Origin: Verrucomicrobiaceae bacterium
Lineage (GTDB): Bacteria; Verrucomicrobiota; Verrucomicrobiia; Verrucomicrobiales; Verrucomicrobiaceae
Direction of reading: 5' to 3'
Assembly (NCBI GenBank): GCA_027486585.1
Contig: JAIXOU010000011.1
Coordinates: forward strand, 1 to 64,000
Length of the DNA: 64,000 nucleotides
In this document: one piece after another, positions 49,561 through 64,000 of the stretch
How positions within the stretch are numbered: the first letter of the stretch is position 1
Layout of the letters: each line of letters starts with the position of its first letter
Notes under the pieces: generated by a model
Told to the model about the DNA's origin: nothing
Seen by the model: only the letters and a program-made list of their open reading frames with translations
The model's database searches: none
Translations under genes and position numbers: made by a program

Positions 49561-50061
49561 ATGGCAGACTACTTCCTAGGTCAGATTAAAACCTTCAGCT
49601 TTAACTTTATTCCCCGTGGCTGGTTCCCCTGTGATGGGCGCACCTTACCGATCAATCAAAATCAGGCGCTATTCTCGCTGCTGGGCACCACATATGGGGG
49701 CAATGGCACTACGACTTTTGCCCTGCCGGATTTCCGTGGCCGCATGCCCATCCACGTTGGGGCGGGTCACACACAGGGGGAGCGGGCAGGCACTGAGACG
49801 CACGTCTTGCTGACGACACAGATGCCTGCGCACACGCACAACCTGACGGCCAGCGCCAACAACGCTGACTTGAGTCTGCCAACCAATAACTTTCTCGGTG
49901 GCGGTGGTCAGGCCGTCTATAATGCGGCCTCATCGCTTGTCCCCATGGCCCCGGCGGTGGTGGAAAATGCAGGTGCTAGCCAAGCGCATAATAACCTGCC
50001 GCCCTACCTTCCTTTAACCATTGCCATCTGCGCGGCTGGCATCTTTCCATCTCGTAATTAA
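49561..50061 (+). CDS. phage tail collar protein 2
   Basis: This 166-residue collar-domain protein (GQIKTFSFNFIPRGWFPCDG, GTTYGGNGTTTFALPDFRGR) has a shorter variable loop than copy 1 and the same terminal GIFPSRN. The gene starts after a pyrimidine-rich stretch without a Shine-Dalgarno. It lies 26 bases from copy 1 and 18 from copy 3. Confidence 0.9.
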   Translation: MADYFLGQIKTFSFNFIPRGWFPCDGRTLPINQNQALFSLLGTTYGGNGTTTFALPDFRGRMPIHVGAGHTQGERAGTETHVLLTTQMPAHTHNLTASANNADLSLPTNNFLGGGGQAVYNAASSLVPMAPAVVENAGASQAHNNLPPYLPLTIAICAAGIFPSRN

Positions 50062-50079
50062 TCTTCACTTCCTCACTTT

Positions 50080-50613
50080 ATGGCAGATCCTTTTATTGGC
50101 GAAATCATGATGGCTGGCTTCAACTTTCCACCGCGAGGCTGGGCCGTTTGCGATGGTCAAATCCTGCCCATTCAGCAAAATACGGCGCTGTTTTCCCTGC
50201 TTGGCACCACTTACGGTGGCAATGGCACGACTACCTTCGCCCTGCCCGATCTCCGGGGCCGCACGCCGATGCAGCAGGGACAGGGACCTGGGCTCAGTGT
50301 CAGAGACATCGGTGAACAAGGAGGAGTAGAAAATGTCACGCTGACATCGGCTGAAATCCCCAGTCATAGCCATGCGCTGCGGGCCACCACGGCTCCCGCT
50401 ACCACGGCTGCGCCCGCAGGTGCCATCTGGGCCGTCTCAGGCTCCCGCCGCAGCACCACGAATCTCTACACAAATGCAGCCGGGGCGGGCGCGGTCATGA
50501 GTAATCAGGCTCTAGCACCTGCTGGCAGTTCCCAACCGCACAATAACATGCCGCCTTACCTGACGGTGACTTTCTGCATCGCGCTCACAGGGGTTTTTCC
50601 ACCTCGTAGCTAA
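50080..50613 (+). CDS. phage tail collar protein 3
   Basis: This 177-residue collar-domain protein (GEIMMAGFNFPPRGWAVCDG, GTTYGGNGTTTFALPDLRGR) is the third tandem copy. Its variable loop (TTAPATTAAPAGAIWAVSG) differs from both others. A hairpin lies a few bases after the stop. The methyltransferase gene follows after 47 bases. Confidence 0.9.
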   Translation: MADPFIGEIMMAGFNFPPRGWAVCDGQILPIQQNTALFSLLGTTYGGNGTTTFALPDLRGRTPMQQGQGPGLSVRDIGEQGGVENVTLTSAEIPSHSHALRATTAPATTAAPAGAIWAVSGSRRSTTNLYTNAAGAGAVMSNQALAPAGSSQPHNNMPPYLTVTFCIALTGVFPPRS

Positions 50614-50616
50614 TTC

Positions 50617-50635
50617 AGCCTGAATCAATCAGGCT
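50617..50635. other. hairpin after collar gene 3
   Basis: A 7-bp stem AGCCTGA/TCAGGCT with loop ATCAA has no U-tract, so it is not a standard terminator. It may stabilise the collar mRNA or separate it from the methyltransferase message. Confidence 0.45.
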
Positions 50636-50660
50636 AACCTGTCGGCCCTTCTTTCTAGAT

Positions 50661-51656
50661 ATGCCATCTCCTGCGGCCCAGCTCCATCAGCACAGCTTTG
50701 AGCTGATCAGCATCCATGAGGCGCTACTGCAGGATGCTCCCAGGAACCGTGCCTTTTATCAGGCACTGTCCCAGCAGGTGACGGCAGGCTCCAGCGTCCT
50801 CGACATCGGCTCTGGCACCGGTCTCTGGGCCATCATGGCGGCAAAGCTGGGCGCGGCCCGCGTCGTGGCCATTGAAAAAGATAGCCTCATGTGCGGCATC
50901 ATCCGCCGGCTAGCTCAGGAAAATGGCGTGGCAGATCGCGTCACTGTCATGGAAGGCCTGTCCAGCGCGGTCGATCTCGGCGGTGAAACTTTTGATATTG
51001 TCCTCTCAGAGACCGTCGGCCACCTGATTTATGATGAAGACATCGTCGAAGTCATGATGGACGCCCGTAGCCGTTTCCTGAAGCCTGGCGGCATCCTCAT
51101 CCCGCAGCACGTGGCCCTTTTTGCCGCTCCGCTGAATCTCGGTCTGTCAGGTGAAGCTTACCCGCACGGGCTAGAGGCACGCTTTGATTCCTTCCAAGCT
51201 CTGTCTCTGCACCGACCGCTGGCTTATCTGGATAAATCACCCTTTACCTGGCTAGGGCAGAAAGTGGAACTGACGCAGACCGACCTGCGCACCTGCACCG
51301 GTCGGCCAGATTTGACCCAGCTCACCGCCAGCTGGACCCTGGCAGATACCATCGCGCTGGATGGCGTGGCTGTCTGGGCAGAGATGCAGCTCAGTGACGA
51401 CCTGACCCTCAGCACGCTGGACACACCCTCCTGGTCCGTCACCGTCTATCGTCTGGCCCCATTCACCGCCGCAGCCGGTCAGCTGGATTACAAACTAGAG
51501 ATCCTGCCAGAAACCAATGCCTGGACCGGCACCCTCGGCGGCCAGACCCAGCGCCTCTCACCCGCCATCGCCGCCACTCAGATGGTCATGCAGTCCAGCG
51601 TGGCCATCTCCCACCTACCGCACCTACTTCATCCTTCCACGGAGGGTGCCGCATGA
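50661..51656 (+). CDS. PRMT-like SAM-dependent methyltransferase
   Basis: This 331-residue class I methyltransferase has SAM motif I (VLDIGSGTGLW, residues 47-57), AIEKDS as the acidic site and LSETVGHLIYDED, which takes the place of the double-E loop in protein arginine methyltransferases. The C-half is a beta-barrel-like extension, also PRMT-like. It may methylate Arg or another side chain of the collar proteins. Stop and next start overlap (ATGA). Confidence 0.85.
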   Translation: MPSPAAQLHQHSFELISIHEALLQDAPRNRAFYQALSQQVTAGSSVLDIGSGTGLWAIMAAKLGAARVVAIEKDSLMCGIIRRLAQENGVADRVTVMEGLSSAVDLGGETFDIVLSETVGHLIYDEDIVEVMMDARSRFLKPGGILIPQHVALFAAPLNLGLSGEAYPHGLEARFDSFQALSLHRPLAYLDKSPFTWLGQKVELTQTDLRTCTGRPDLTQLTASWTLADTIALDGVAVWAEMQLSDDLTLSTLDTPSWSVTVYRLAPFTAAAGQLDYKLEILPETNAWTGTLGGQTQRLSPAIAATQMVMQSSVAISHLPHLLHPSTEGAA

Positions 51657-52141
51657 GCCAGCTACCTGCCATTACACTACGTCCAGCCACAGACGCTGAC
51701 ATCCCGCTGCTTTTCCGCATCTATGCCGGCACGCGTGAGCAGGAGCTAGCCATGCTACCCTGGACCCCAGAGCAAAAGCATGAGTTCCTCGCCATGCAGT
51801 TTCATTGTCAGCACACGGACTATCACCAAAACTACGCCCAGGCTGCCTTTGACGTGGTGGAGTGTGAGGCTCAGCCCGTGGGCCGACTCTATCTGGACCG
51901 CCGAGCAGAGTCCCACCACATCATCGACATCGCCATTCTGCCTGAGCATCGGGGAAAAGGCATCGGTTCCCGTTTATTGGAGGATGTGATTGCCGAGGCT
52001 CACTCCTTGGGTAAACTCGTGGCCATTCACGTCGAAAAGCACAATCCCGCCCTCCGGCTCTACCAGCGTCTCGGCTTTATCGAGCGTGGCAGCAGCGACT
52101 TTCATTTCCTCATGGAGCATCCGCCCCAGCCTCACGCTTAA
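51653..52141 (+). CDS. GNAT acetyltransferase
   Basis: This 162-residue N-acetyltransferase has the acetyl-CoA-binding motif RGKGIGSRLLEDV and the LYQRLGF signature in motif B. It overlaps the methyltransferase by four bases and so is likely coupled to it. The acceptor is unknown: collar protein, small molecule or peptide. Confidence 0.9.
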   Translation: MSQLPAITLRPATDADIPLLFRIYAGTREQELAMLPWTPEQKHEFLAMQFHCQHTDYHQNYAQAAFDVVECEAQPVGRLYLDRRAESHHIIDIAILPEHRGKGIGSRLLEDVIAEAHSLGKLVAIHVEKHNPALRLYQRLGFIERGSSDFHFLMEHPPQPHA

Positions 52142-52154
52142 AAACCCACCTCTT

Positions 52155-52577
52155 ATGAAATCACGTCGCCAATTCATCCAGCGCTGCTCCAGCGCCCTGC
52201 TTAGCGCCTCCGTTCTCCCAGTCATGGGTGCGATCGTCACCGCTGCTCCAACACTCAGCTACAGTGCCTTTGCACCGCTGGTGAACACCCCGTTTGAGCT
52301 TCTCAGCCCTAACGGTGTCCAGATCCCCGTCCTGCTTGGCCGTGCTTCCCTGCACACCAGACCCAACTCGACGGTGACGGACGAGCGGAACTTCACGCTC
52401 AAGTTCACCAGTCAACAAGCCGAAGGTCTTGGCGATGGCATTCACAGCTTCCGCCACGCGCAGTTAGGCACCGTGCAGATGTTTGTGGTTCAGACCACCG
52501 CACGCGACGGCGACACAAAGAACTACTTGGCGACCTTTCAAGGCGTCCCCGTTTCTAGTGCTAATCGGCTCGCTTAA
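52155..52577 (+). CDS. DUF6916-like protein with Tat signal
   Basis: This 140-residue protein starts with a twin-arginine signal (SRRQFIQ at residues 3-9) and a hydrophobic segment. The mature part matches the 48615 protein (FAPL-N-TPFELL, FTLKF, HSF-H-QLG). It would be exported folded. The frame is open to 51990, overlapping the GNAT gene, but the MKSRRQF start is clear. It is a second copy of the family in the cluster, compartmentalised differently. Confidence 0.72.
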   Translation: MKSRRQFIQRCSSALLSASVLPVMGAIVTAAPTLSYSAFAPLVNTPFELLSPNGVQIPVLLGRASLHTRPNSTVTDERNFTLKFTSQQAEGLGDGIHSFRHAQLGTVQMFVVQTTARDGDTKNYLATFQGVPVSSANRLA

Positions 52578-52605
52578 GCCGAAGTTATTCGAGGAGGGTA
52601 ACCCT

Positions 52606-53181
52606 TCAATCAATTGGCGGGATGGAGGCGCGGATCTCATCCAGCAGCGTCCTGGTCCCGTGTAGGCCACACCAGTGGTGGATGTAGTCCCAGTCCAGGA
52701 ACTCATCTCCCTGCACGGCGATCACGTCCCGCACGTCCTCCGAGTCCTTGCCCCGTTTGGCGATCTTGGCCCAGCGTAGCTTCATGATGATCACATCCTC
52801 GGCCGTGGGGACGATGATTTCACAGCCGATCTGACTGGAAAAGACTCGCCTCCTACGCTCAAAGCGGGCTTGGTCATGGGGATCGGAGCTGAGCATGAAA
52901 AGCTCTATTTCAAAAGCGATGGTCAGCACCCGCAGGTGATAACGCATGGTTCCTGTGACCATCTCGAAGGTGCCTTGGTCATCAATGGCAAAATCGGGTC
53001 CTAATTGTTGAGCCACTTCAAACAGCGTCTTCGCGTCCACTGCCAGCACGATGTCAGCATCCTTTGTTGAGCGTGGGATGCCGTAAGCATTGCTGGAAAG
53101 CCCGCCCACCACCATGTGATTCACGCCCAGTTCGACAAATTTTTCCACGACCCGTCGTGTCGCCTCGTAGCCGTTTTTCAT
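52606..53181 (-). CDS. nucleotidyltransferase-like protein (AbiEii/MNT type)
   Basis: This 191-residue protein carries the minimal nucleotidyltransferase pattern G26-G-L-S-S-N-A-Y-G followed by D41-A-D43. Such proteins occur as toxins or antitoxins (AbiEii, MNT) and in housekeeping enzymes. It overlaps its upstream partner (ATGA, 53178-53181). The module is inserted between collar genes in antisense orientation. Confidence 0.78.
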   Translation of the reverse strand: MKNGYEATRRVVEKFVELGVNHMVVGGLSSNAYGIPRSTKDADIVLAVDAKTLFEVAQQLGPDFAIDDQGTFEMVTGTMRYHLRVLTIAFEIELFMLSSDPHDQARFERRRRVFSSQIGCEIIVPTAEDVIIMKLRWAKIAKRGKDSEDVRDVIAVQGDEFLDWDYIHHWCGLHGTRTLLDEIRASIPPID

Positions 53182-53465
53182 GATGCCTGGATGGGGTGCT
53201 TACTGTAAATGCCATGTTCATGCACCTGCTTGAGCCGCCGCAGTCGCCAGCGTAGCAGAGTCTCCACATCGGCGGCATCTTTATCAGGGAACTGAGCCCT
53301 TATCCCGTCTCGCATGATGCCTAAGGCACCCTCGAAGAGCTCGATAGCCGTATCGATGCGCTCACCGACCGACAAGCGCCTCGCCCGCCGCACTTTGTCA
53401 GCGTAGATCGCATCCGCTAGGGCTTTGATGTTCTCCTCCATGGTGGAAGGTATAGTCTCGATCAC
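53178..53465 (-). CDS. partner of the nucleotidyltransferase-like protein
   Basis: This 95-residue protein is Arg/Glu-rich and helical, with no domain recognised. Its stop overlaps the nucleotidyltransferase gene, and it precedes it in the operon. This fits antitoxin or chaperone roles in MNT-type pairs, by inference. An alternative in-frame start is ATG 53441 (MEENIKALADA). Confidence 0.65.
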   Translation of the reverse strand: MIETIPSTMEENIKALADAIYADKVRRARRLSVGERIDTAIELFEGALGIMRDGIRAQFPDKDAADVETLLRWRLRRLKQVHEHGIYSKHPIQAS

Positions 53466-54037
53466 TCAGCCTGCCACATTTTTTCGTAGCATCGAGTGGC
53501 ACTTGAAGTTTTGGCCTGTAGCTACAGGAACGGGATAAGCCGCCAATCATGGTGTTTGGTGAAAATGGTCTCTTCCCTGAATCTGCTGGAAGATCCTCAT
53601 CTTGCCCCTCAAGCAAGCCGTCTTGAGTCTAGGTGCTCTGTTCGGTGCCCCGGAAACTCATTCTCGGGCGGAGCATAGCTTTCTTGGCTGTGTAGGCACA
53701 GTCGAGACGCCTGTGCTCCATATTTACTCTCAGGGACTCCTCAATAATAAATCCATCATGCTCACTAAGAAGTGCACAGGCAAAAGATACGCAGGTGTGC
53801 AGAATTTTCCAAAAGGCTTGATCTTGGTCTTAAGTTCCTTCCAGCGCTTACTCGGGTGAGAATTGCTGTGATTTATTCGTCACGCGAGAAGAAAAAGGTT
53901 GATATGGATTGGTTGATTGACTTATAACCTGGTTAACTCTTCACCTTTTGAAGAGGTTGGTGGATCAGATGTGCTTCAGTCACCCCACGTGACGAGGCTA
54001 GACAAGGTTAAAATAATTCAAAACAAACATAAAAATT
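53466..54037. other. gene-free stretch before collar gene 4
   Basis: About 570 bases with no convincing gene. A frame at 53602-53859 gives a Ser/Leu/Lys-rich product with no family. The stretch ends in an AT-rich leader (ATAAAAATT) before collar 4, and a candidate promoter is listed separately. Confidence 0.6.
53899..53928 (+). promoter_or_regulatory. candidate sigma-70-like promoter for collar genes 4-5
   Basis: TTGATA (53899-53904) and TATAAC (53923-53928) with an 18-base spacer lie about 110 bases before the collar-4 start. The boxes resemble the sigma-70 consensus, but Verrucomicrobiota promoters are poorly known and the match is modest. Confidence 0.4.
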
Positions 54038-54568
54038 ATGGACCCATTCGTCGGACAACTCATGTGTGTAGGCTTTAACTTCGCTCCCAAAGGTTATGCT
54101 TTTTGTGATGGCAAATTGCTGTCGATCCAGCAAAACGCAGCGCTCTTTTCTCTTCTCGGTACAACTTACGGTGGCGACGGACGCACCACTTTCGCACTGC
54201 CAGATCTGCGCGGGCGCTCACCGATCGGGATGGGCAATGGGCCAGGCTTGAATCCGATTGCTCAGGGCCAAGCCGCTGGCGCACAGCAAGCGACTCTGCT
54301 GGCCAGTCAAATGCCAGCGCACAATCACATCTTGGCAGCTTCTAATACAGCCACGAGCACAGCCCCATCAGGACTGGTGCCTGCAACGACGAGTGATTCA
54401 GTTGTTGGAGCTGTCGTCAGTGCCTACGGCGCACCCACTCCCAACGTCAACCTGGCGGCTAATGCTTGTGGGCTTGCGGGTGGTAATCAGCCTGTCAATA
54501 TCATGAATCCTTATCTCGGCTTGAATTGGATTATTGCCCTGCAGGGCATCTTCCCTTCAAGGAACTAA
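54038..54568 (+). CDS. phage tail collar protein 4
   Basis: This 176-residue collar-domain protein (GQLMCVGFNFAPKGYAFCDG, GTTYGGDGRTTFALPDLRGR) belongs to a different subfamily from copies 1-3: the first strand reads MCVGFNFAP, and the loop contains AASNTATSTAPSGLVPATTSDS in outline. It ends GIFPSRN. Confidence 0.9.
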   Translation: MDPFVGQLMCVGFNFAPKGYAFCDGKLLSIQQNAALFSLLGTTYGGDGRTTFALPDLRGRSPIGMGNGPGLNPIAQGQAAGAQQATLLASQMPAHNHILAASNTATSTAPSGLVPATTSDSVVGAVVSAYGAPTPNVNLAANACGLAGGNQPVNIMNPYLGLNWIIALQGIFPSRN

Positions 54569-54598
54569 CCCCACCGATCACCCTTTACCTTCTTTTTT

Positions 54599-55129
54599 AT
54601 GGCAGAACCATTTATTGGACAGCTTATGTGTGTCGGTTTTAACTTTGCTCCAGTTAACTGGGTATTTTGTAACGGACAGCTTTTATCAATCGCAGAAAAC
54701 TCTGCTTTGTTCTCTCTTTTAGGCACGACTTACGGTGGTGATGGTCAGTCCACTTTTGCAGTGCCGAACCTCCAGGGGCGAGCGGCCGTGGGCATGGGAA
54801 CTGGGCCAGGGCTGCGCAATATCGCCTTCGGAGAGGCTGCAGGATCACAGCAAATCACGCTGAATATTAGCAATCTGCCGGCGCATAGTCATCCCATCGC
54901 AGCCTCAAGTACAGCGACGAGCACGGCCCCAGCAGGCTTGGTTTCTGCGACGACGAGTGACTCTGCGTTAGGTGCTGAAGTCAGCGCTTATGGCGCAGCG
55001 GATGGTAATACGCTGGCTGCGGCGGCTTGTATTAGTGCCGGTGGAGGTCAGCCATTCGATATCACCAATCCATATCTCGGCTTGAATTGGATCATTGCTC
55101 TCCAGGGAATTTATCCTACACAGAACTGA
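54599..55129 (+). CDS. phage tail collar protein 5
   Basis: This 176-residue protein is a close sister of copy 4: GQLMCVGFNFAPVNWVFCNG, GTTYGGDGQSTFAVPNLQGR, and a matching AASSTATSTAP-G-LVSATTSDS loop. The collar domain has Asn in place of the usual Asp in CDG. A pyrimidine-rich stretch (TACCTTCTTTTTT) precedes ATG. Confidence 0.9.
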   Translation: MAEPFIGQLMCVGFNFAPVNWVFCNGQLLSIAENSALFSLLGTTYGGDGQSTFAVPNLQGRAAVGMGTGPGLRNIAFGEAAGSQQITLNISNLPAHSHPIAASSTATSTAPAGLVSATTSDSALGAEVSAYGAADGNTLAAAACISAGGGQPFDITNPYLGLNWIIALQGIYPTQN

Positions 55130-55431: not shown

Positions 55432-55590
55432 ATGAAGCCTTCTGTCATCACCCGTCTCATCCTCACCCTGCGCGGTGAGTGGGTGATCTTGAAGTGTGAT
55501 CACTTGCTGAGCCAACTCTGGCATCAACTCCAGCCACTGCTCGCACCACAGCCCGTCCAGCCAAAGCCCCGCATCGGTTTTCATCAATGA
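55432..55590 (+). CDS. small ORF ahead of the FN3 protein
   Basis: This 52-residue frame (MKPSVITRLILTLRGEWVIL...) overlaps the longer start of the next frame by four bases (ATGA at 55587). The sequence has a hydrophobic start and a Gln/Pro-rich end. No homologue is recognised. The real start of the FN3 gene is likely 55632, which weakens the coupling argument. Real or spurious is undecided. Confidence 0.3.
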   Translation: MKPSVITRLILTLRGEWVILKCDHLLSQLWHQLQPLLAPQPVQPKPRIGFHQ

Positions 55591-55631
55591 ACCTTGTCAC
55601 GCCTGCCCGTTCCTCTCACGCTCCCTCTCTT

Positions 55632-57116
55632 ATGAAGAACTCGATCCTATCACGCCTTTTCGCGCCGTTCCATCGGTTTGCCCGCAGTGCCAGGCCAGTA
55701 CTTGCCTGCCTCGTTGGGTTCATGGGCATCTTCCTCAGTGCGCCACACCTGGCCCTGGCCGCACCGACGACTGGCACCACCACGTTTCCAACAAGCGGTG
55801 GGTTCACCACTATTGGAAATCAAACTTCTCCACGCTCGGTGAATTATCTGGGTTTCTCCTTCAATGCGGTTTCTGGTGGGAACGTCAGCATTTCTCAGGC
55901 TGGCACTGCGGTAAATCTTCTGGTGAATTCAGGAGGTCCTTCGTATCTGGGCTTTGCCTCGGATGACAGCAGCAAATTCAAGCTCAGTAGTTTTATCCTC
56001 CGCGCCACCAACGCGACATATATTAGCACGCTGACCTTGACGGGGTACAGCGCCGGCTCCGCTGTCTCTGGGGCCACGAGCACTCTGACCCTCACGGCCA
56101 GTGGCATCGGCAACGAGCGCACCTGGGATGTGTCTGCAATCACCGGGTTTCAAAACATCGACGAAGTGCGCATCACCGGACCGACCACAGGGACCGGCGG
56201 GGTCGCCTTGGTCAGCATCACCATTGCCACCGCCGTCACACCTGCCGTCGCACCCACCGTGACCACCGCCACCCAAAGCGCCGTCACGACCACCAGCGCG
56301 ACCTTGGGCGGCAATGTGACCGCCGATGGAGGCGCGAGCGTCACGGAACGTGGCATCGTTTGGGGCACCGCCACAGCGCCGACCACCGCGAACAACAAGG
56401 TGCAAAACGGCAGCGGCACGGGCGCTTTCAGCGGCACCGTCACTGGCTTGCCTGCGGGCGCCACCGTCTTTGTCCGGGCTTATGCCATCAACAGCGTGAA
56501 CACCAGCTACGGAAGCGAGATCAGCTTTGCTACCCAGCCGCCACCCAACACCGTCACCTCGCTGAACCGTGTCAATCCTGCCACCACGAACCTCACCACG
56601 GTGAACTGGACGCTGACCTTTGCCGCTGCCAACACCGGCGTCTCCGCCAGCAACTTCTCCCTCAGCGGCGCAGCAGCCGCAGGTGCCAGCGTCGGCTCGC
56701 CCACGACAAGCAATGCTGGCGTCACTTGGAACGTGCCTGTGACCACCGGCAGCACGGATGGCACGCTCACGCTGAGCCTCGCCAATGCCACCGGCACGAC
56801 ACCGGGCGTATCCACCACGCTGCCCTTCACCACGGCGGGCCAAAGCTACACAATGGATAAAACACTGCCCACCGTCATCTCCATCGTCCGCCAGACGCCG
56901 ACCTCCCAGACCACCAGTAGCACCAGCCTGACCTTCCGCGTCACCTTTAGTGAGGCCGTGAATGCGCCTGTTGCATCCAATTTCGCCGTCGCCGCAGTCA
57001 GCAGCAGCATTACCGGCAGTATTGGCACGGTCACTGCGGTCAACTCTAGCACCTATGACGTCCCCGTCACGATCACCGGCGGCTCGGGGGAGTTCAGGTT
57101 AAAGGTCATAGACTGA
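55632..57116 (+). CDS. secreted FN3/Ig-like beta protein
   Basis: This 494-residue protein starts with a signal peptide (MKNSILSRLFAPFHRF and a hydrophobic core) that is very like that of the RCC1 gene. A beta-rich N-domain is followed by an FN3-like domain (about 204-300, GIVWGTATAP...), an Ig-like part (302-412) and a final Ig-like segment (413-494) ending SGEFRLKVID before the stop. The frame also opens at 55587, but paralogy favours 55632. It is predicted secreted or surface-located, with no sorting signal seen. Confidence 0.78.
   Translation: MKNSILSRLFAPFHRFARSARPVLACLVGFMGIFLSAPHLALAAPTTGTTTFPTSGGFTTIGNQTSPRSVNYLGFSFNAVSGGNVSISQAGTAVNLLVNSGGPSYLGFASDDSSKFKLSSFILRATNATYISTLTLTGYSAGSAVSGATSTLTLTASGIGNERTWDVSAITGFQNIDEVRITGPTTGTGGVALVSITIATAVTPAVAPTVTTATQSAVTTTSATLGGNVTADGGASVTERGIVWGTATAPTTANNKVQNGSGTGAFSGTVTGLPAGATVFVRAYAINSVNTSYGSEISFATQPPPNTVTSLNRVNPATTNLTTVNWTLTFAAANTGVSASNFSLSGAAAAGASVGSPTTSNAGVTWNVPVTTGSTDGTLTLSLANATGTTPGVSTTLPFTTAGQSYTMDKTLPTVISIVRQTPTSQTTSSTSLTFRVTFSEAVNAPVASNFAVAAVSSSITGSIGTVTAVNSSTYDVPVTITGGSGEFRLKVID
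56866..57116 (+). repeat. duplicated Ig-like segment, copy 1 (of two)
   Basis: About 250 bases at the 3' end of the FN3 gene match the 3' end of the RCC1 gene (59704-59954) with only scattered differences, for example PTSQ(T/A)TSST and VNAP(V/A)ASNF. Both copies end at SGEFRLKV-x-D and then TGA. Confidence 0.85.
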
Positions 57117-57141
57117 CTTCCTTTTAACGCTTTCTCACGCG

Positions 57142-57402
57142 ATGCTTTCACCCTTTTCCTGCATGATACGCTGCTTCCGAGCCACTCTGGCCTTGGCCGC
57201 CTTCGGCTTCGGCACTTTCATTCCCTCGCAAGCCATCCCGACCTATTCGCTTCCCGTTCCCGCGGACGGCAACGCCACGTGCGATGTGACCGTGAACCTC
57301 ACCAGTGGGACCGGGGAATTCCGCCTTCGTGTCACCACTGATCCGTTCCTCAAACCTGTCTTTCCCCTTTCCTCTTTCCCTTCTCTGCCTTCTTTCTTAT
57401 GA
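57142..57402 (+). CDS. mini secreted protein (signal peptide + C-motif)
   Basis: This 86-residue frame has a signal-peptide-like start (near MIRCFRATLALAAFGFG) and then the same terminal motif as its neighbours (TSGTGEFRLRV), but a Pro/Phe/Ser tail follows. Its stop overlaps the RCC1 gene start (ATGA, 57399-57402). It looks like a minimal or remnant module, not a folded enzyme. It may be a pseudogene. Confidence 0.4.
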   Translation: MLSPFSCMIRCFRATLALAAFGFGTFIPSQAIPTYSLPVPADGNATCDVTVNLTSGTGEFRLRVTTDPFLKPVFPLSSFPSLPSFL

Positions 57403-59954
57403 AGAACTCGATCCTCTTCGCACCTCTGCATCGGTTTGCCGGCAGTAGCAGAGCATTCCTATTCCTGTTGGCCCTCATGGGTGCATCTACGACGACGGCG
57501 ATGGCGGCTATTGCGACGCTGGGAACCCAGTCCAGCCAATACACTAACAGCAATACGCTGGCTTACACCGTCAATGCAGGTACGGATCGTCTGCTGGTGG
57601 TGGCGCTAGGGGATCCCAATACGGCGACGAATCCGACTGCGGTGACCTACAATGGGACGTCGATGTTGCAGGCAAATGCCACCGCCGACCTCGGTTTTTC
57701 CAACGACGCGATCTGGTATCTGAAACTGGGCACGGGTGGGGCCATCACTTCAAACATCGTAGTTACGTTTGCGGCTGCCGGAAACGCGGGCAGCAGTCGC
57801 TTCATCGGTGCCTCGGCATATTCCGGGGTGGACCAGACGACGCCCGTGGATATCAACGGGCCCAAGATTTCAGGTTCCGTCACCACGACTGGATCATCAC
57901 TTAATGTCACCAGCCAAACGGGTGACTTGGTCTTTGATCTCTTCGACTCTTACAAAACTGCCAGCCAGACTGCGGTCACGACTGGTGCCGGGCAGACCCG
58001 AATCAATGAAGCCGGAGGATTGATTACGCCCACTGGAGGTAACGGGCACTACGTCACCAGCACGGAGGCTGGAGCAGCCACGGTGACGATGAGCTGGACT
58101 GGGGACTCCGAGGCCGTCCTGCATCTGACGATGAACATCAATGCGGGAGCTGTCGATACGACACCGCCCACTGCCATTGCCGTGAATCGCCAGCCGCTGA
58201 CGACTCTCGCGGTGAGTGGATCGAGCACGGTGTTCCGCGTGACCTTCAGCGAGACGGTGACGGGCGTGGATACGTCTGACTTCACGCTCTTCAAAATCGG
58301 CACTGTGAATGGCACCGTCGCTTCCATCTCCGGCAGCGGTGCGGTCTATGATGTCACGGTGAATTCCATCACGGGCTTCGGCTCGCTTCGGCTGGATTTA
58401 AAGCACAGCGGCACGGGCATCGTGGATGGGGCCTCCAATGCGCTCGCCGATGGCTATGACAATGGCCAGGTGGTCCGTGTGGGCACCACCGTCCCCATCG
58501 GCTGGGGCAATCACACCGTCGGGCAGATCGGCGATGGCACTGCGGTAGGCGGAAACAAAATCTTCCCCACGGCGGTGGATACTTCCGGTGTGCTCAGCGG
58601 CAAAAACATCGTGCAGATGGCCTCCGGGGCGAACTGGACGCTCGTCCTCACGGCTGACAACCAACTTTACGCCTGGGGTAACAACAACGTCGGCCAGCTC
58701 GGCACCGCCACGGCCAGCCTCGCCTTGTCAACTGTGCCAGTCGCCGTGCCCATGACCGGCGTGCTCAGTGGGAAGACCATCGTCAAGATCGCCTGTGGCG
58801 ATGCCTTTAGCATGGTGCTGGACTCAGATGGCAAACTCTACGCCTGGGGGGTGGGCACTTCCGGGCAGTTGGGCGATGGGCTCAGCACCACCGGCTTTGC
58901 GGCTGTCGCTGTCTCCACCAGCACTGGATTGAGCGGCAAGGTCGTCACCGACATGTCGGGCGGTAGCGCCTTCGCCATCGCGTGCACCTCGGATGGTGGC
59001 ATTTACACCTGGGGCAATCCAGGCAATGGACGCCTAGGCAATGGCACGACGACAGGCAACGTGACAATGCCCGCTCAGTTGGGTGGCGTTTTCACTGGCA
59101 AGCGTGTCATCGCCGTCTCCGGCGGCGGCTCCTTTGGCGCGGCTCTCACCTCCGATGGACGCGTCTATAGCTGGGGCAACAATACCGCAGGTCAGCTCGG
59201 CGATGGTGGCGGCACCATCGGCACGCCGACCAACAATCCTACGCCTGCGGGTATCCTTGGCACCGGTTTGCTGCCCGGCAGCCGCACCATCGCCAACATC
59301 ACCTGCACTTTTTCCGGCATGTATGCCATCGCCCGGGACGGCACCTTGTATTCTTGGGGTGCAGGCACTTTAGGCGGCTTGGGCAATGGCGGCACCACCA
59401 CCAGCACTTCCCCTGTTCTAGTGGACACCACGGGCGTGCTCTCCGGCAAAACCATTGCCGCCATCAACGGCGGCAACAACTTCGCCGAGGTTATCACCAC
59501 CGAGGGCAAAGCCTACAGTTGGGGCACCAATGCCAGTGGCCAGCTCGGTGACGGCACCACGACGCAGCGCAACAACCCCATCGCCGTCGATGTGAGTGCT
59601 GCCAACAGCGCCCTCAATGGCAAGACCCTCAGCTTCCTGTCTCAGAGCGGCCAGGGGACCTTCACCATGATGGCGGTCAACGCCGCCGTCCCCGACACCA
59701 CGCCACCCACCGTCGTCAGCATCGTCCGCCAAACGCCCACCAGCCAGGCCACCAGCAGCACCTCTGCCACCTTCCGCGTCACCTTTAGCGAGGCGGTGAA
59801 TGCGCCTGCTGCATCCAATTTCGCCATCGCCGCAGTCAGCAGCAGCATCACCGGCAGTATTGGCACGGTTACGGCGGTGAACGCCAGCACCTACGACGTA
59901 CCCGTCACCATCACTGGCGGCTCGGGAGAGTTCCGCCTCAAAGTCCAAGACTGA
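57399..59954 (+). CDS. secreted RCC1-repeat (seven-blade propeller) protein
   Basis: This 851-residue protein has a signal peptide (MKNSILFAPLHRF, cleavage after about 36). An N-terminal beta domain (about 37-250) is followed by an Ig-like segment (about 255-360). Then come seven RCC1-type blades marked by WG motifs (GWGNHT, AWGNNN, AWGVGT, TWGNPG, SWGNNT, SWGAGT, SWGTNA; about 366-770), a full propeller. A final Ig-like segment ends SGEFRLKVQD. The propeller may bind a protein or polymer. It lies directly upstream of the FN3/cadherin protein. Confidence 0.85.
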   Translation: MKNSILFAPLHRFAGSSRAFLFLLALMGASTTTAMAAIATLGTQSSQYTNSNTLAYTVNAGTDRLLVVALGDPNTATNPTAVTYNGTSMLQANATADLGFSNDAIWYLKLGTGGAITSNIVVTFAAAGNAGSSRFIGASAYSGVDQTTPVDINGPKISGSVTTTGSSLNVTSQTGDLVFDLFDSYKTASQTAVTTGAGQTRINEAGGLITPTGGNGHYVTSTEAGAATVTMSWTGDSEAVLHLTMNINAGAVDTTPPTAIAVNRQPLTTLAVSGSSTVFRVTFSETVTGVDTSDFTLFKIGTVNGTVASISGSGAVYDVTVNSITGFGSLRLDLKHSGTGIVDGASNALADGYDNGQVVRVGTTVPIGWGNHTVGQIGDGTAVGGNKIFPTAVDTSGVLSGKNIVQMASGANWTLVLTADNQLYAWGNNNVGQLGTATASLALSTVPVAVPMTGVLSGKTIVKIACGDAFSMVLDSDGKLYAWGVGTSGQLGDGLSTTGFAAVAVSTSTGLSGKVVTDMSGGSAFAIACTSDGGIYTWGNPGNGRLGNGTTTGNVTMPAQLGGVFTGKRVIAVSGGGSFGAALTSDGRVYSWGNNTAGQLGDGGGTIGTPTNNPTPAGILGTGLLPGSRTIANITCTFSGMYAIARDGTLYSWGAGTLGGLGNGGTTTSTSPVLVDTTGVLSGKTIAAINGGNNFAEVITTEGKAYSWGTNASGQLGDGTTTQRNNPIAVDVSAANSALNGKTLSFLSQSGQGTFTMMAVNAAVPDTTPPTVVSIVRQTPTSQATSSTSATFRVTFSEAVNAPAASNFAIAAVSSSITGSIGTVTAVNASTYDVPVTITGGSGEFRLKVQD
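59704..59954 (+). repeat. duplicated Ig-like segment, copy 2 (of two)
   Basis: Same segment as 56866-57116, ending at the TGA of the RCC1 gene. The high nucleotide similarity, including silent sites, points to recent duplication or gene conversion. Confidence 0.85.
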
Positions 59955-60027
59955 CCCTTTTCTGCTCCCGCCTCCCTTTTTTAAATCCTCGCCGCCGTCT
60001 CCCTCACCTCCGCCACATTTTTCCCGC

Positions 60028-63000
60028 ATGAAACTCCGCTCACTCCTCCTCGCGCTCTTCACGGTCTGCCTACCCGCTGCGCTCTCTGCTGCGGCGATCA
60101 CTGACCTGGTGGGCAACGCCATCGCGACTGGCACCTCCACGGATCGGGTGCCCTTCACGGCGAATAGCGCGGGGGTTTATGAGACCTTCATCCTGACCGC
60201 CGTTCCGGGCGCACCGACTTCGCCAGTGGCGACGCGCGGCAATGCTTCGGCAAGTGTGGCGTTCACGGCACCCGCAAGCAACGGCGGCTCGGCCATCCTC
60301 AGTTACACGGTGACTTCCAGCCCTGGTGGCCTCACCGGCACAGGCGCAGCTTCACCGATCAGCGTCAGTGGTCTGACCAACGGCACGGCATACACTTTCA
60401 CGGTCACAGCGACGAACGCAGTCGGGACGGGTGCGGCATCGGTGGCATCGGCAGCGGTGACTCCGGCAACGGTTCCGGGTGCTCCGACTTCGCCAGTGGC
60501 GACGCGGGGCAATGGTTCGGCTAGCGTGGCTTTTGTAGCGCCAGCGAGTAATGGCGGTTCGGCGATTACTGGTTACACAGTGACTTCCAGCCCCGGCGGC
60601 TTTACGGGCACGGGAACAGGCACGCCAATCGTGGTCAGCGGCTTGACCAACGGCACGGCCTACACTTTCACCGTTACAGCGACGAACGCAGTCGGGCCGG
60701 GCGCGGCATCGGCGGCATCGGCAGCGGTGACTCCGGCGACTGTTCCGGGAGCGCCGACTTCGCCAGTGGCGACGGCGGGCAATGCGTCGGCGAGCGTGGC
60801 TTTCACGGCTCCTGCGAGTAACGGTGGCTCGGCGATCACGGGCTACACGGTGACTTCCAGCCCTGCTGGCATCACGGCGACGGGGAGCACCTCGCCAATC
60901 AATGTAACGGGGCTGACCAACGGCACGCCTTACACCTTCACCGTCACTGCGACGAATGTGGTGGGGCCAAGCGCGGCTTCGGCGGCTTCGAACTCGGTCA
61001 CTCCGGCTGCGGCGGCGGACATCACCTCCTCGCTTAGCGGTGGAATCCTGACGGTCACCGCCAGCGTCGCTGCTAGCACCACTTTCCGCGTTGTCGGTGG
61101 TTTCTTGGAAATCTATGACCCGACGAGCACCCTTGGTGGCGGTGCGGGCATCACCATTGTGGACAGCCACACCGTTCGCATCCCGCTTGCTTCCATCCCG
61201 AACGGATTGGTCATCAATGGCAGTGCTGCGGCGGATACTTTCACGTTTGACTTCACCAATCCCGCGCTCGCGCTACCTGGTGGTATTACCGTCAATGGTG
61301 GGCTTCCGAACGTTTCACCGGGCGATTCGATCGCGGTGGTCAACGGCAACTTTGGCCAAGTGGAATACTCTACCACTGGGCCAGGGGCAGGAGTGGTGGA
61401 GGCGGATTTGACCCCCATCATCACCTTCACAGGCATGGAGCCCCTGGACTTCTCCAGCTCGACCATTGCCAGCCTCATCGTCGATGTGGACCCAACCAGC
61501 TCCTTCGCGGGCAACATCACCACCACCGTGGCCAGCGCGGACGCCGGGGTGAACACGCTGATCTCCTTTGGCAGCAGCGGGCTAGAAAGCATCAAAGTCG
61601 GAGCCGTGACTGGCAGCATCAGCGTTATTGGTGACGACTTGGAGCAAGATTACTTCATTCTGAGCAGTCTGGGCACGGCGATGCTGGGTGACTTCAGTGT
61701 CGATGGCAAAGGCGGCGACTCGGATGTGGTCGAGATCAACAATACCACCTTCACCGTCGCTGGTGCGGGTAAAAACTTCAGCGCCAAGGCAGACTTCATT
61801 GGTCTGGGCCGCGACGCGACCGGCATCAATCCCGGAGTGCTCGTGTGCAGCGGCAACATCACCCTGGAAGCCGATGGCGACGGCAGCCTCGCGAGCGTCT
61901 TCCTGGGCGCTGGCGGTGTCTGGGCGCTGCCTACTACGTTGGACTCCACGCAAGCCCTCGCCGTGGCACGCGGCAGCATCCAGGTCTGCGGAGCCATCAC
62001 CAAATCCAGCGGTGCTGATGCCACGCTGACGCTGAAGGCGAAAAATGGCGTCTTCCTCACCCGCGCCGGGACGTCCACCTCTGGCGGCACCATCACCTCC
62101 ACCAGCAACAAGCTGCACGTTGTGATGAATGCCGACTCCGACAACACCCTCGGCGGCGTGGTCCACTGCAAGCACTACAGCAGCGTCACCAGCAATGGCG
62201 GCGACATCACCCTCGGCGGCGGAGCCACCCCGGCTACCAGTCCGGCAATTGGCAATGGCGCTGGCTCAGGGGCCAGCGGCATCGAACTCGCTGCCACCAC
62301 GCTCACCTCCGGCGGCGGTAACATTTCCATCCGAGGCCAGGGCGCAACGGCAGGCACCAGCACCATCGGGGCTCTCATCGCCGCGAGCACTGGCACCCAA
62401 GACTGCACCATCAGCAGTGGAGTAGGCAGCCTGACCATCGTCGGCAACGGCGGCACAGCGGGCATTGCCACAGGCATCCAGATCAGCGGCAACACCGCCG
62501 GTCCGCTCTTTACCAAGATCCTCTCCACCACTGGCGCCATCAGTCTCACAGGCGTTGGCGGCGCAGTCGCCAACGCGGTTGGCATCGCCTCCACGAACAA
62601 CCTCGACATCATCGGCAGCGGGGCGGCGAATGTCAGCCTCAGCGGCACACCCACGGGAACAGGACTCGGCATCAGCTTTGGTGCAGCAGCCGGAGCAGCT
62701 ATCCGAGCGCAAAGTGCGGGCGGCAATGTCACCTTCATGGGCGACCGGATGAGCCTCAACCTCAGCACCGGCACCAAGACCATCAGCACCACCGGCAGCG
62801 GCATCGTTACCCTCAAGCCGCTGACCGCAGCACGTCTCATCAATCTAGGCAGCACCCTGGATAACACCGCCAACACGCTGGAACTCAGCAACGCCGAACT
62901 CGCCAACATCACCGCACCGACGCTCACCATTGGCGACGGCAGCAACGGAGCCATCACCGTGAGCGCCGTGATCAGCCCGGTCAATTACCCGACCCTCGCC

Positions 63001-64000
63001 CTCATCGGCAACACCACTTTCTCCGCCACGGGCGGATTCACCACTGACGTAACCAGTGCCAGCGTGTTCGAAAAAGTCACGGTCACTGGCACAGTGAACA
63101 TCACTGCCGGAGCCGCGCTTACGATGGCCAGCGCAGGCGGTTACATTTGGAACGGTTCAGATGCCTTCACCATCCTCGACAACGACGCCGCCGATGCCAT
63201 CACCGGCACCTTCACCGGGCCGACGCTAACGAATTTCCTCGGCAGTGCGCTCACGGTCACGCAGGGCTACGCAGCTGGCACAGGCAATGACCTGGTCTTC
63301 TCGGCTCCTCCCTCCGCCAATGCGGACCTCTCCGCGCTCTCCACCACCGCCACCGGCATGACGCCCGCGTTTGGTGCCGCGACCCTGACCTACAATGCCA
63401 CGGTGCTGAATGCCACCACGACGACCACAGTCACCGCCACCCGCGCCCAGGCGAACGCGACGCTGCAAGTGCAGGTCAACGGCGGAGGCTTCTCCCCGCT
63501 GACTTCGGGTGTCGCCAGTGGCCCGCTTTCACTCAATGTCGGCGCGAACCCCATCCAGGTGCGTGTTACCGCACAAGATGGCACAACGATCCAGACCTAC
63601 ACCATCACCGTCACGCGTGCGGCACCTGTTACTCCCGACGCACCGACCTCTGTGACGGGAACGGCGGGTGATGCCTCAGCTAGCGTCGCCTTTACCGCAC
63701 CTGCTTTTGATGGTGGCTCTGCCATCCTCAGTTACACAGTGACCTCCAGCCCTGGTGGCTTCACCGGAACAGGTGCTGCCTCACCAATCAGTGTCAGTGG
63801 TCTGACCAATGGCACGGCCTACACCTTCACTGTGACCGCCACGAATGCCATCGGCACAGGTGCGGCCTCAGCCCCATCCACAGCCGTGACGCCACGCACC
63901 GTCCCAGGTGCCCCGAGCTCCCCAGTGGCCACGCCGGGCAATGCCTCAGCCAGCGTCGCCTTTACCGCACCTGCTAGCAATGGTGGCGCTGCGATCACCA
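60028..64000 (+). CDS. secreted FN3/cadherin-like giant protein (3' end outside window)
   Basis: The frame from ATG 60028 stays open for all 1324 codons to the right edge. A signal peptide (MKLRSLLLALFTVCLPAALS) is followed by DLVGNAIATG, which resembles the end of an Ig-like domain. Three FN3 repeats (90 residues each) follow, then a beta-rich region with AxLSGG- and TSGGGNI-type repeats. A cadherin-like segment (about 1100-1195, LSTTATGMTPAFGAATLTYNA) precedes two more FN3 units at the edge. The protein is predicted surface-located. Confidence 0.8.
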   Translation, partial: MKLRSLLLALFTVCLPAALSAAAITDLVGNAIATGTSTDRVPFTANSAGVYETFILTAVPGAPTSPVATRGNASASVAFTAPASNGGSAILSYTVTSSPGGLTGTGAASPISVSGLTNGTAYTFTVTATNAVGTGAASVASAAVTPATVPGAPTSPVATRGNGSASVAFVAPASNGGSAITGYTVTSSPGGFTGTGTGTPIVVSGLTNGTAYTFTVTATNAVGPGAASAASAAVTPATVPGAPTSPVATAGNASASVAFTAPASNGGSAITGYTVTSSPAGITATGSTSPINVTGLTNGTPYTFTVTATNVVGPSAASAASNSVTPAAAADITSSLSGGILTVTASVAASTTFRVVGGFLEIYDPTSTLGGGAGITIVDSHTVRIPLASIPNGLVINGSAAADTFTFDFTNPALALPGGITVNGGLPNVSPGDSIAVVNGNFGQVEYSTTGPGAGVVEADLTPIITFTGMEPLDFSSSTIASLIVDVDPTSSFAGNITTTVASADAGVNTLISFGSSGLESIKVGAVTGSISVIGDDLEQDYFILSSLGTAMLGDFSVDGKGGDSDVVEINNTTFTVAGAGKNFSAKADFIGLGRDATGINPGVLVCSGNITLEADGDGSLASVFLGAGGVWALPTTLDSTQALAVARGSIQVCGAITKSSGADATLTLKAKNGVFLTRAGTSTSGGTITSTSNKLHVVMNADSDNTLGGVVHCKHYSSVTSNGGDITLGGGATPATSPAIGNGAGSGASGIELAATTLTSGGGNISIRGQGATAGTSTIGALIAASTGTQDCTISSGVGSLTIVGNGGTAGIATGIQISGNTAGPLFTKILSTTGAISLTGVGGAVANAVGIASTNNLDIIGSGAANVSLSGTPTGTGLGISFGAAAGAAIRAQSAGGNVTFMGDRMSLNLSTGTKTISTTGSGIVTLKPLTAARLINLGSTLDNTANTLELSNAELANITAPTLTIGDGSNGAITVSAVISPVNYPTLALIGNTTFSATGGFTTDVTSASVFEKVTVTGTVNITAGAALTMASAGGYIWNGSDAFTILDNDAADAITGTFTGPTLTNFLGSALTVTQGYAAGTGNDLVFSAPPSANADLSALSTTATGMTPAFGAATLTYNATVLNATTTTTVTATRAQANATLQVQVNGGGFSPLTSGVASGPLSLNVGANPIQVRVTAQDGTTIQTYTITVTRAAPVTPDAPTSVTGTAGDASASVAFTAPAFDGGSAILSYTVTSSPGGFTGTGAASPISVSGLTNGTAYTFTVTATNAIGTGAASAPSTAVTPRTVPGAPSSPVATPGNASASVAFTAPASNGGAAIT
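60202..61011 (+). repeat. FN3 tandem repeats, 270-bp period (three units)
   Basis: Units start at 60202, 60472 and 60742 with GTTCCGGG. Shared segments include GGCTCGGC, TACACGGTGACTTCCAGC and TGACCAACGGCACG. The same unit reappears at 63631 and 63901 with the same 270-base spacing. The repeats are nearly identical at DNA level, which suggests recent duplication. Confidence 0.88.

What the first reader, a model, noticed from the sequence alone, without database searches (positions are those of the whole stretch)
57060..60130. Signal peptides placed repeatedly after a GEFRL(K/R)V motif
The FN3 gene and the RCC1 gene end at SGEFRLKV-x-D, and the mini-gene carries GEFRLRV. Each junction is followed by a pyrimidine-rich stretch and a new signal peptide. 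The giant protein's first residues (DLVGNAIATG) look like the missing tail of the same Ig-like domain. The series may come from one long protein broken at a recurring point, or from module shuffling.
Basis: partly seen in the sequence, partly recalled or inferred. Interest (0 to 1): 0.65.

Follow-up and report, generated by a model that had tools for sequence, protein, structure and literature searches.

The report
Ig-like domain split between neighbouring proteins
In a group of aquatic bacteria, one small building block of secreted proteins is repeatedly found cut in two, the larger part ending one protein and the missing piece often sitting in the next gene's protein, with the parts in between exchanged; whether the two pieces join outside the cell is an open and testable question.

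Summary
Two genes end at SGEFRLK-V-x-D-stop and a mini-ORF carries GEFRLRV. The motif is the sixth of seven strands of an Ig-like domain (AlphaFold of the window's complete copy, pLDDT 93). The terminal copies ("heads") lack the last strand; the giant protein starts, right after its signal peptide, with that missing piece ("tail"). No assembly error: a second assembly (G061) has the same junction. Of 76 named loci, the 8 with GEFR stop there, 67 run on, 1 is cut. Of 17 heads with a visible stop, 8 have an orphan tail in the next gene, 6 do not, 3 are cut by contig ends. Of 9 orphan tails, 8 have a readable upstream gene; all 8 end in a head (search partly circular). In G154 head and tail sit in one chain, separated by a beta-propeller. 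Against G061 the RCC1 propeller is swapped (~63% identity, 94-100% on both sides), with edges in or near Ig-like copies. I favour trans-completion of the split domain, like donor-strand complementation, but this is inferred: the one model that could have shown it left the tail unplaced. Relics of domain shuffling is the main rival.

The parts
55587..57116 (+).
   Evidence: no Pfam match at E<=0.1
56859..57113 (+). terminal head of the FN3 gene: Ig-like domain without its last strand, ending SGEFRLKVID*
57142..57402 (+). mini-ORF: signal-peptide-like start plus the last part of a head (GEFRLRV, 57271-57336); read as the relic of a deleted head gene (inference)
   Evidence: differs by 1 base in the 282-base interval from G061; similar pieces in G024, G071 and G013
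57399..59954 (+). RCC1 gene (851 aa): signal peptide, N-terminal domain, complete Ig-like domain, RCC1 beta-propeller, terminal head
   Evidence: RCC1 2.7e-48, WD40_RLD 1.9e-65
58164..58490 (+). complete copy of the Ig-like domain (head and tail contiguous: GSLRLDLKHSGTGIVDGASNALADGYDNGQVVRV)
   Evidence: pLDDT 93.1; Big_12 3-93/102, 26.3 bits, cut-off 27
58250..59700 (+). propeller segment replaced relative to G061 (54-73% identity per 100-base bin in 58401-59700; identity falls over 58.2-58.4 kb and returns at about 59.70 kb)
59697..59951 (+). terminal head of the RCC1 gene, ending SGEFRLKVQD*
   Evidence: 10 synonymous, 1 non-synonymous change against G061
59955..60027 (+). pyrimidine-rich intergenic leader (82% C+T)
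60028..60090 (+). signal peptide of the giant protein (by eye)
60091..60207 (+). orphan tail at the mature N-terminus of the giant protein (AAITDLVGNAIATG...GVYETFILTAVP)
   Evidence: (E 1.2e-11, but it was in the seed alignment)
60028..63999 (+). giant protein (fn3 and cadherin-like domains), open at the window end and still open at the contig end (67,466); the frame is 4,763 aa in G061

Best explanation
These are modular secreted proteins of Verrucomicrobiota whose Ig-like (Big_12-like) domain is split before its last strand. Protein A ends in a head of six strands; in about half of the cases the protein of the next gene, B, carries the missing loop and last strand, at or near its mature N-terminus or inside the chain (in four genomes just after an ASH-type domain). 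Shown: the anatomy, its recurrence at one point in several genera, the neighbourhood of heads and tails, and the replacement of a propeller between Ig-like copies. Inferred: (1) the split arose by insertion of foreign sequence (a propeller in G154; elsewhere stop, leader, signal peptide and further modules) into the loop before the last strand, and was spread by recombination between Ig-like copies; (2) outside the cell the head takes up B's strand, so that exchangeable A proteins (FN3, RCC1 and other propellers) dock on a large B protein, as in donor-strand complementation.
For: Of 76 named loci the 8 with GEFR stop there, 67 run on, 1 is cut by its contig. Of 9 orphan tails, 8 have a readable upstream gene and all 8 of those genes end in a head. 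G192, in another family, has gene 1 head then gene 2 tail-first, and gene 2 head then gene 3 tail; the gene-3 tail was not in the search alignment. G154 has head, propeller, tail in one chain. AlphaFold puts the break after strand 6 of 7 of the complete copy; Big_12 matches the G192 heads only at 1-63 and 3-65 of 102 positions but the complete window copy at 3-93 (all below cut-off). The RCC1 head has 10 synonymous and 1 non-synonymous change against G061, dN/dS 0.03 against 0.41 for the gene's middle. Module swap.
Against: Trans-completion is not shown. In the AlphaFold model of the G154 chain, where head and tail could meet, residues 350-371 have pLDDT below 50 and no packing on the head can be claimed. 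6 of 17 heads have no tail in the next gene: four stand before another head gene, two (G024; G071 contig 584) before genes that look unrelated by eye. In G024, G057 and G071 no orphan tail was found at E<=1, though all three are fragmented (900, 510 and at least 584 contigs). The tail models were seeded with tails I found beside heads, so the adjacency count is partly circular; two (G060, G192 gene 3) were found blind and one of these has no readable upstream gene. Window heads do not match Big_12 at all: the RCC1 head gives Big_5 below cut-off, the FN3 and G034 heads no Ig-like family. The selection figures rest on two close genomes and few changes (tail: 3 synonymous, 1 non-synonymous).
Confidence: 0.4

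Rival explanations
1. Shuffling relics only. The Ig-like domain was cut by insertions and the pieces stayed near each other because the loci descend from a few events and are copied as blocks. Heads fold well enough alone and tails are leftovers.
For: Module exchange with edges in or near Ig-like copies; pieces of heads exist (mini-ORF; G024, G071, G013); heads without tails exist.
Against: The tail keeps a recognisable form in species where what stands before it differs; the RCC1 head changes far less in protein than the rest of its gene (two genomes only); occurrence in G192, another family.
Confidence: 0.35
2. The head is a C-terminal sorting or anchoring domain (by analogy with C-terminal domains of other secretion systems, recalled): different secreted proteins share it because an export or surface-attachment machine recognises it; the tails are incidental.
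For: Different bodies (RCC1; a weak DUF5050 propeller match below cut-off; TIG; Big_9) share the same last domain, and the GEFR copies all stop at the same place.
Against: Does not explain orphan tails beside heads, nor G154 where a head is internal. Found in 7 of 48 genomes of the genus, one to three complete heads in each.
Confidence: 0.2
3. Assembly or sequencing error, or recoding that joins the frames.
For: None found.
Against: The same stops and leaders in G061; junctions of different length and content in relatives; whole modules lie between head and tail in G034, G005 and G451.
Confidence: 0.02

Closest known systems
Donor-strand complementation/exchange (chaperone-usher pili, search listings; TasA fibres, PMC9674648, and archaeal thread, PMC9715654: abstracts and section lists seen)
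   Same: An Ig-like or related fold lacking one strand, and a neighbouring subunit with a strand that could complete it; in the window, G061, G013 and G192 gene 2 the strand is at or near the mature N-terminus; G192 gene 2 would be donor and acceptor.
   Different: Here the missing strand is the C-terminal one, acceptors are C-terminal domains of proteins with different bodies, in several genomes the donor is internal, no chaperone or usher was looked for, and no complex is shown.
Pfam Big_12 / Big_5 bacterial Ig-like domains
   Same: The window's complete copy matches Big_12 over 3-93 of 102 positions; G192 heads match its first 63-65 positions; the RCC1 head matches Big_5 at 2-57 of 105.
   Different: All these matches lie below Pfam's curated cut-offs; the FN3 and G034 heads match neither.
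Mosaic surface-protein genes with recombining modules (general knowledge; for example polymorphic toxin cassettes, PMC3482391, seen in a search listing only)
   Same: Conserved ends, exchanged middle; edges in repeated domains.
   Different: The edges lie in or near the Ig-like copies themselves, and a split domain lies at the joint.
SpyTag/SpyCatcher (recalled)
   Same: A last strand split from an Ig-like domain that finds its partner in trans.
   Different: Engineered and covalent; nothing here indicates an isopeptide bond.

Membership tests
Donor-strand complementation systems | acceptor domain lacks a strand of its fold | tested here: met
   Alignment and AlphaFold of the complete copy: the head ends after strand 6 of 7; the head itself was not modelled alone
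Donor-strand complementation systems | partner carries a strand that can complete the fold | tested here: inconclusive
   Tail aligns to the canonical last part, but the G154 model leaves it unplaced, pLDDT <50
Donor-strand complementation systems | non-covalent complex or fibre | not testable with these tools
   needs protein
Chaperone-usher pili | chaperone and usher genes | not tested
   not searched for; no claim of membership
Pfam Big_12 | score above the curated cut-off (27 bits) | tested here: not met
   26.3 (window complete copy), 26.2 and 23.2 (G192 proteins), 15.8 (G165 copy); no match for the two window heads
C-terminal sorting domain | C-terminal position on different secreted proteins | tested here: met
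   17 heads with a visible stop; bodies differ in Pfam content
C-terminal sorting domain | dedicated export or attachment machinery | not tested
   -

The most novel reading that the evidence does not exclude
A natural split Ig-like domain, distributed over adjacent genes, works as a plug-and-socket: any protein that ends in a head can be docked on the large protein that carries the last strand, and recombination at the Ig-like copies changes what is plugged in. G192 gene 2, tail at one end and head at the other, would allow chains.
Probability: 0.35. Interest if true: 0.8.

Novelty: new variant of a known kind. Interest (0 to 1): 0.6.

Why it matters
Splitting one fold between neighbouring genes at the same point, in distant families, would be a simple way to make surface proteins from exchangeable parts and could be a native source of strand-tag pairs. 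Even if the pieces do not join, the locus shows domain exchange in secreted proteins with its edges visible. I found no paper on it: donor strand + immunoglobulin-like + Verrucomicrobi gave 0 papers, and nothing of the kind stood in the titles and abstract starts listed (15 of 23; 1 of 1; 10 of 71; 12 of 488; 10 of 37); the rest of those lists was not seen.

Tried and rejected
Rejected: one protein freshly broken in this genome (no GEFR copy with tail among 76 named loci); assembly error (G061); recoding or bypass (whole modules lie between head and tail in G034, G005, G451).

Led nowhere: BLASTP of ten head proteins against each other without composition correction gave long low-identity alignments everywhere, so only the DNA comparison is used. 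A loose tail pattern matched all 67 run-on loci and is too weak to count tails. Fold search of the complete copy gave only weak antibody-like matches (TM 0.35-0.45 in the 50 listed, best E 2.9e-3), and a profile search of PDB sequences weak fibronectin-like matches (best E 0.0062): Ig-like fold class, no named relative. The search for a second copy of either propeller found none in the window's genome or in G061 (at most 6 candidates per genome were scored). Weak tail hits in G180, G206, G165 and a second place in G154 were ordinary complete domains; of the weak class-level hits, G206 and G562 look like ordinary complete domains and G573 and G638 like chance. NCBIfam gave nothing above its cut-offs.
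Full report
The observation. The window's FN3 gene (55587-57116) and RCC1 gene (57399-59954) end at GGSGEFRLKV-I/Q-D-stop, a mini-ORF between them carries TSGTGEFRLRV, and the giant ORF from 60028 starts with a signal-peptide-like stretch followed by AAITDLVGNAIATG. The leaders are pyrimidine-rich as described: the RCC1 and giant leaders are the two most pyrimidine-rich of 32 window ORFs compared (0.97 and 0.80, mean 0.58). The mini-ORF does not stop at the motif but runs into the RCC1 leader. The window's genome (G000) holds two terminal copies, one complete copy and the mini-ORF piece; its other four matches are weak (E 0.0018 to 3.7).

What the motif is. The motif is the sixth strand of an Ig-like domain of about 110 residues. 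The complete copy inside the RCC1 gene (58164-58490) was modelled with 43 aligned sequences: pLDDT 93.1, pTM 0.86, strands 6-12, 24-30, 42-48, 51-60, 63-72, 75-81 and 105-108. The terminal copies ("heads") stop after the sixth strand. The missing loop and last strand ("tail") align with the start of the mature giant protein. Pfam's nearest model is Big_12, below its cut-off; the complete window copy matches positions 3-93 of 102, the heads of G192 only 1-63 and 3-65; the window heads do not match it, the RCC1 head giving a sub-threshold Big_5 match.

Homologues. In a collection of one genome for each of 84,980 species the domain search returned 76 loci (two peptide patterns, so the list is not complete). 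In-frame reading: 8 stop just after the sixth strand, all with GEFR and all from records named Verrucomicrobia, Verrucomicrobiaceae or Brevifollis (L023-L029, L033); 67 run on; 1 (L058) is cut by its contig. In the genus of the window, 10 of 48 genomes matched; 7 of them have terminal heads (G000, G005, G013, G024, G034, G057, G061), G068 has an internal complete domain, G029 a broken piece and G059 a match cut by its contig. G451 (seen as G069 through L024) and G071 (through L033) add two more genomes. In 387 genomes of the phylum (at most 13 candidates scored in each), two further cases appeared: G154 and G192.

Heads and tails as neighbours. Heads with a visible stop, short pieces left out: G000 2, G061 2, G024 1, G013 3 (the one on contig 194 has lost its first strands), G034 1, G005 1, G057 1, G451 1, G071 3, G192 2 = 17. 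Left out: the mini-ORFs of G000 and G061, pieces in G024, G071 and G013, and a G024 head cut by its contig end. The next gene has an orphan tail in 8 (G000, G061, G013 contig 194, G034, G005, G451, G192 twice). It has none in 6: G000 FN3, G061 FN3, G013 contig 56 first and G071 contig 486 first, where another head gene follows (in G000 and G061 after the mini-ORF), and G024 and G071 contig 584, where the next gene looks unrelated (by eye: sulfotransferase-like; sulfatase-modifying-factor-like). In 3 the contig ends (G013 contig 56 second, G057, G071 contig 486 second). G000 and G061 are orthologous loci, one case seen twice.

Orphan tails lie right after the signal peptide (G000, G061, G013), some residues further in (G192 gene 2), after an ASH/HYDIN-type domain (G034, G005, G451, G060) or inside a long protein (G192 gene 3). 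With the tail model the genus search found 6 of 48 genomes: five beside heads and G060, where the upstream side is cut off. The model was seeded with five tails found beside heads and one ortholog, so these five are not blind; G060 and the gene-3 tail of G192 were found blind. The class search of 384 genomes found three of the known cases and G154, all in the seed alignment, and four weak hits that on reading look like ordinary domains or chance. So of 9 orphan tails, 8 have a readable upstream gene, and 8 of 8 end in a head. Against this, G024, G057 and G071 have heads but no tail was found in them at E<=1.

Two telling outliers. In G154 head and tail are in one ORF, separated by an NHL-like propeller of about 250 residues (propeller supported; the best PDB matches are six-bladed designs). 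In G192 three consecutive genes read head; tail-...-head...-tail-.... The second protein would be donor and acceptor at once.

Module exchange. FN3 and RCC1 genes of the window share DNA in two places only at E<=0.01: 222 of 260 bases from the start of the head to just past the stop, and 48 of 64 bases at the signal peptide start (a third reported match is the overlap of the two query pieces). Against G061, 57001-58200 is 99-100% identical per 100 bases and 59701-60300 94-99%, but 58401-59700 is at 54-73% (about 63% overall). Identity falls inside the complete Ig-like copy (91% and 79% in the bins from 58201 and 58301) and returns within one 100-base bin at the start of the terminal head. The FN3 gene shows a smaller dip (83-97%) at 55.6-56.3 kb. 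The window's propeller is closer to one in another genus (G454, 78% over about 1,200 bases) than to that at the same place in G061 (66% over about 890). G454 carries the same kind of complete Ig-like domain before the propeller but no head after it.

Selection. Window against G061 (Nei-Gojobori): RCC1 head 10 synonymous and 1 non-synonymous changes (dN/dS 0.03), RCC1 middle 0.41; FN3 head 1 and 0, FN3 middle 0.48; tail 3 and 1. Heads look well conserved; the tail is too short to say. The RCC1 figures partly compare a replaced segment with an unreplaced one.

Mechanism. Shown: the split, its recurrence, the neighbourhood, the swap. Inferred: insertion into the loop before the last strand as the origin, recombination between Ig-like copies as the means of spread, and completion of the head by the tail of protein B. 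For the last there is no direct evidence. The G154 model, which had the chance, gave pLDDT below 50 for residues 350-371 of 371, most of the tail. I put trans-completion at about 0.4, relics of shuffling at 0.35, and a C-terminal sorting domain at 0.2.

Known relatives. Donor-strand complementation is the closest mechanism: TasA (PMC9674648) and the archaeal thread (PMC9715654) show that it exists outside chaperone-usher pili (abstracts and section lists seen). Membership is not claimed: the completing step was tested only by one model and is inconclusive. The papers listed by searches (lists capped) showed nothing on split Ig-like domains in adjacent genes of this phylum.

Noticed in passing
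window 49561-55129: Four related small ORFs (MADYFLGQ..., MADPFIGE..., MDPFVGQL..., MAEPFIGQ...) that look like tail-collar / microcystin-dependent-protein genes (name recalled, not tested), just upstream of the cluster.
   Followed up: no
window 60028-63999: The giant ORF is still open at the contig end (67,466, beyond the window); in G061 the frame is 4,763 aa, so these loci hold very large proteins.
   Followed up: partly
window 55601-56300 against G061: Besides the propeller, a smaller dip in identity (83-97%) in the FN3 gene suggests a second exchanged segment.
   Followed up: partly
window, leaders of 32 ORFs: 4 of 32 long ORFs show a purine-rich Shine-Dalgarno-like word by a simple pattern; the RCC1 leader is 97% pyrimidine.
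   Followed up: partly
L181:7518-11972: G192 gene 2 holds an FGE-sulfatase-type domain, HYDIN/ASH-type domains and propeller-type matches between its N-terminal tail and C-terminal head.
   Followed up: no
G029:C122:108617-108742: A partial head match with an in-frame TAG in a short frame, perhaps a decayed head.
   Followed up: no
L025, between the head gene and the next gene: A further remnant reading ...GNGDFRLRALN* lies in the interval, like the window's mini-ORF.
   Followed up: partly
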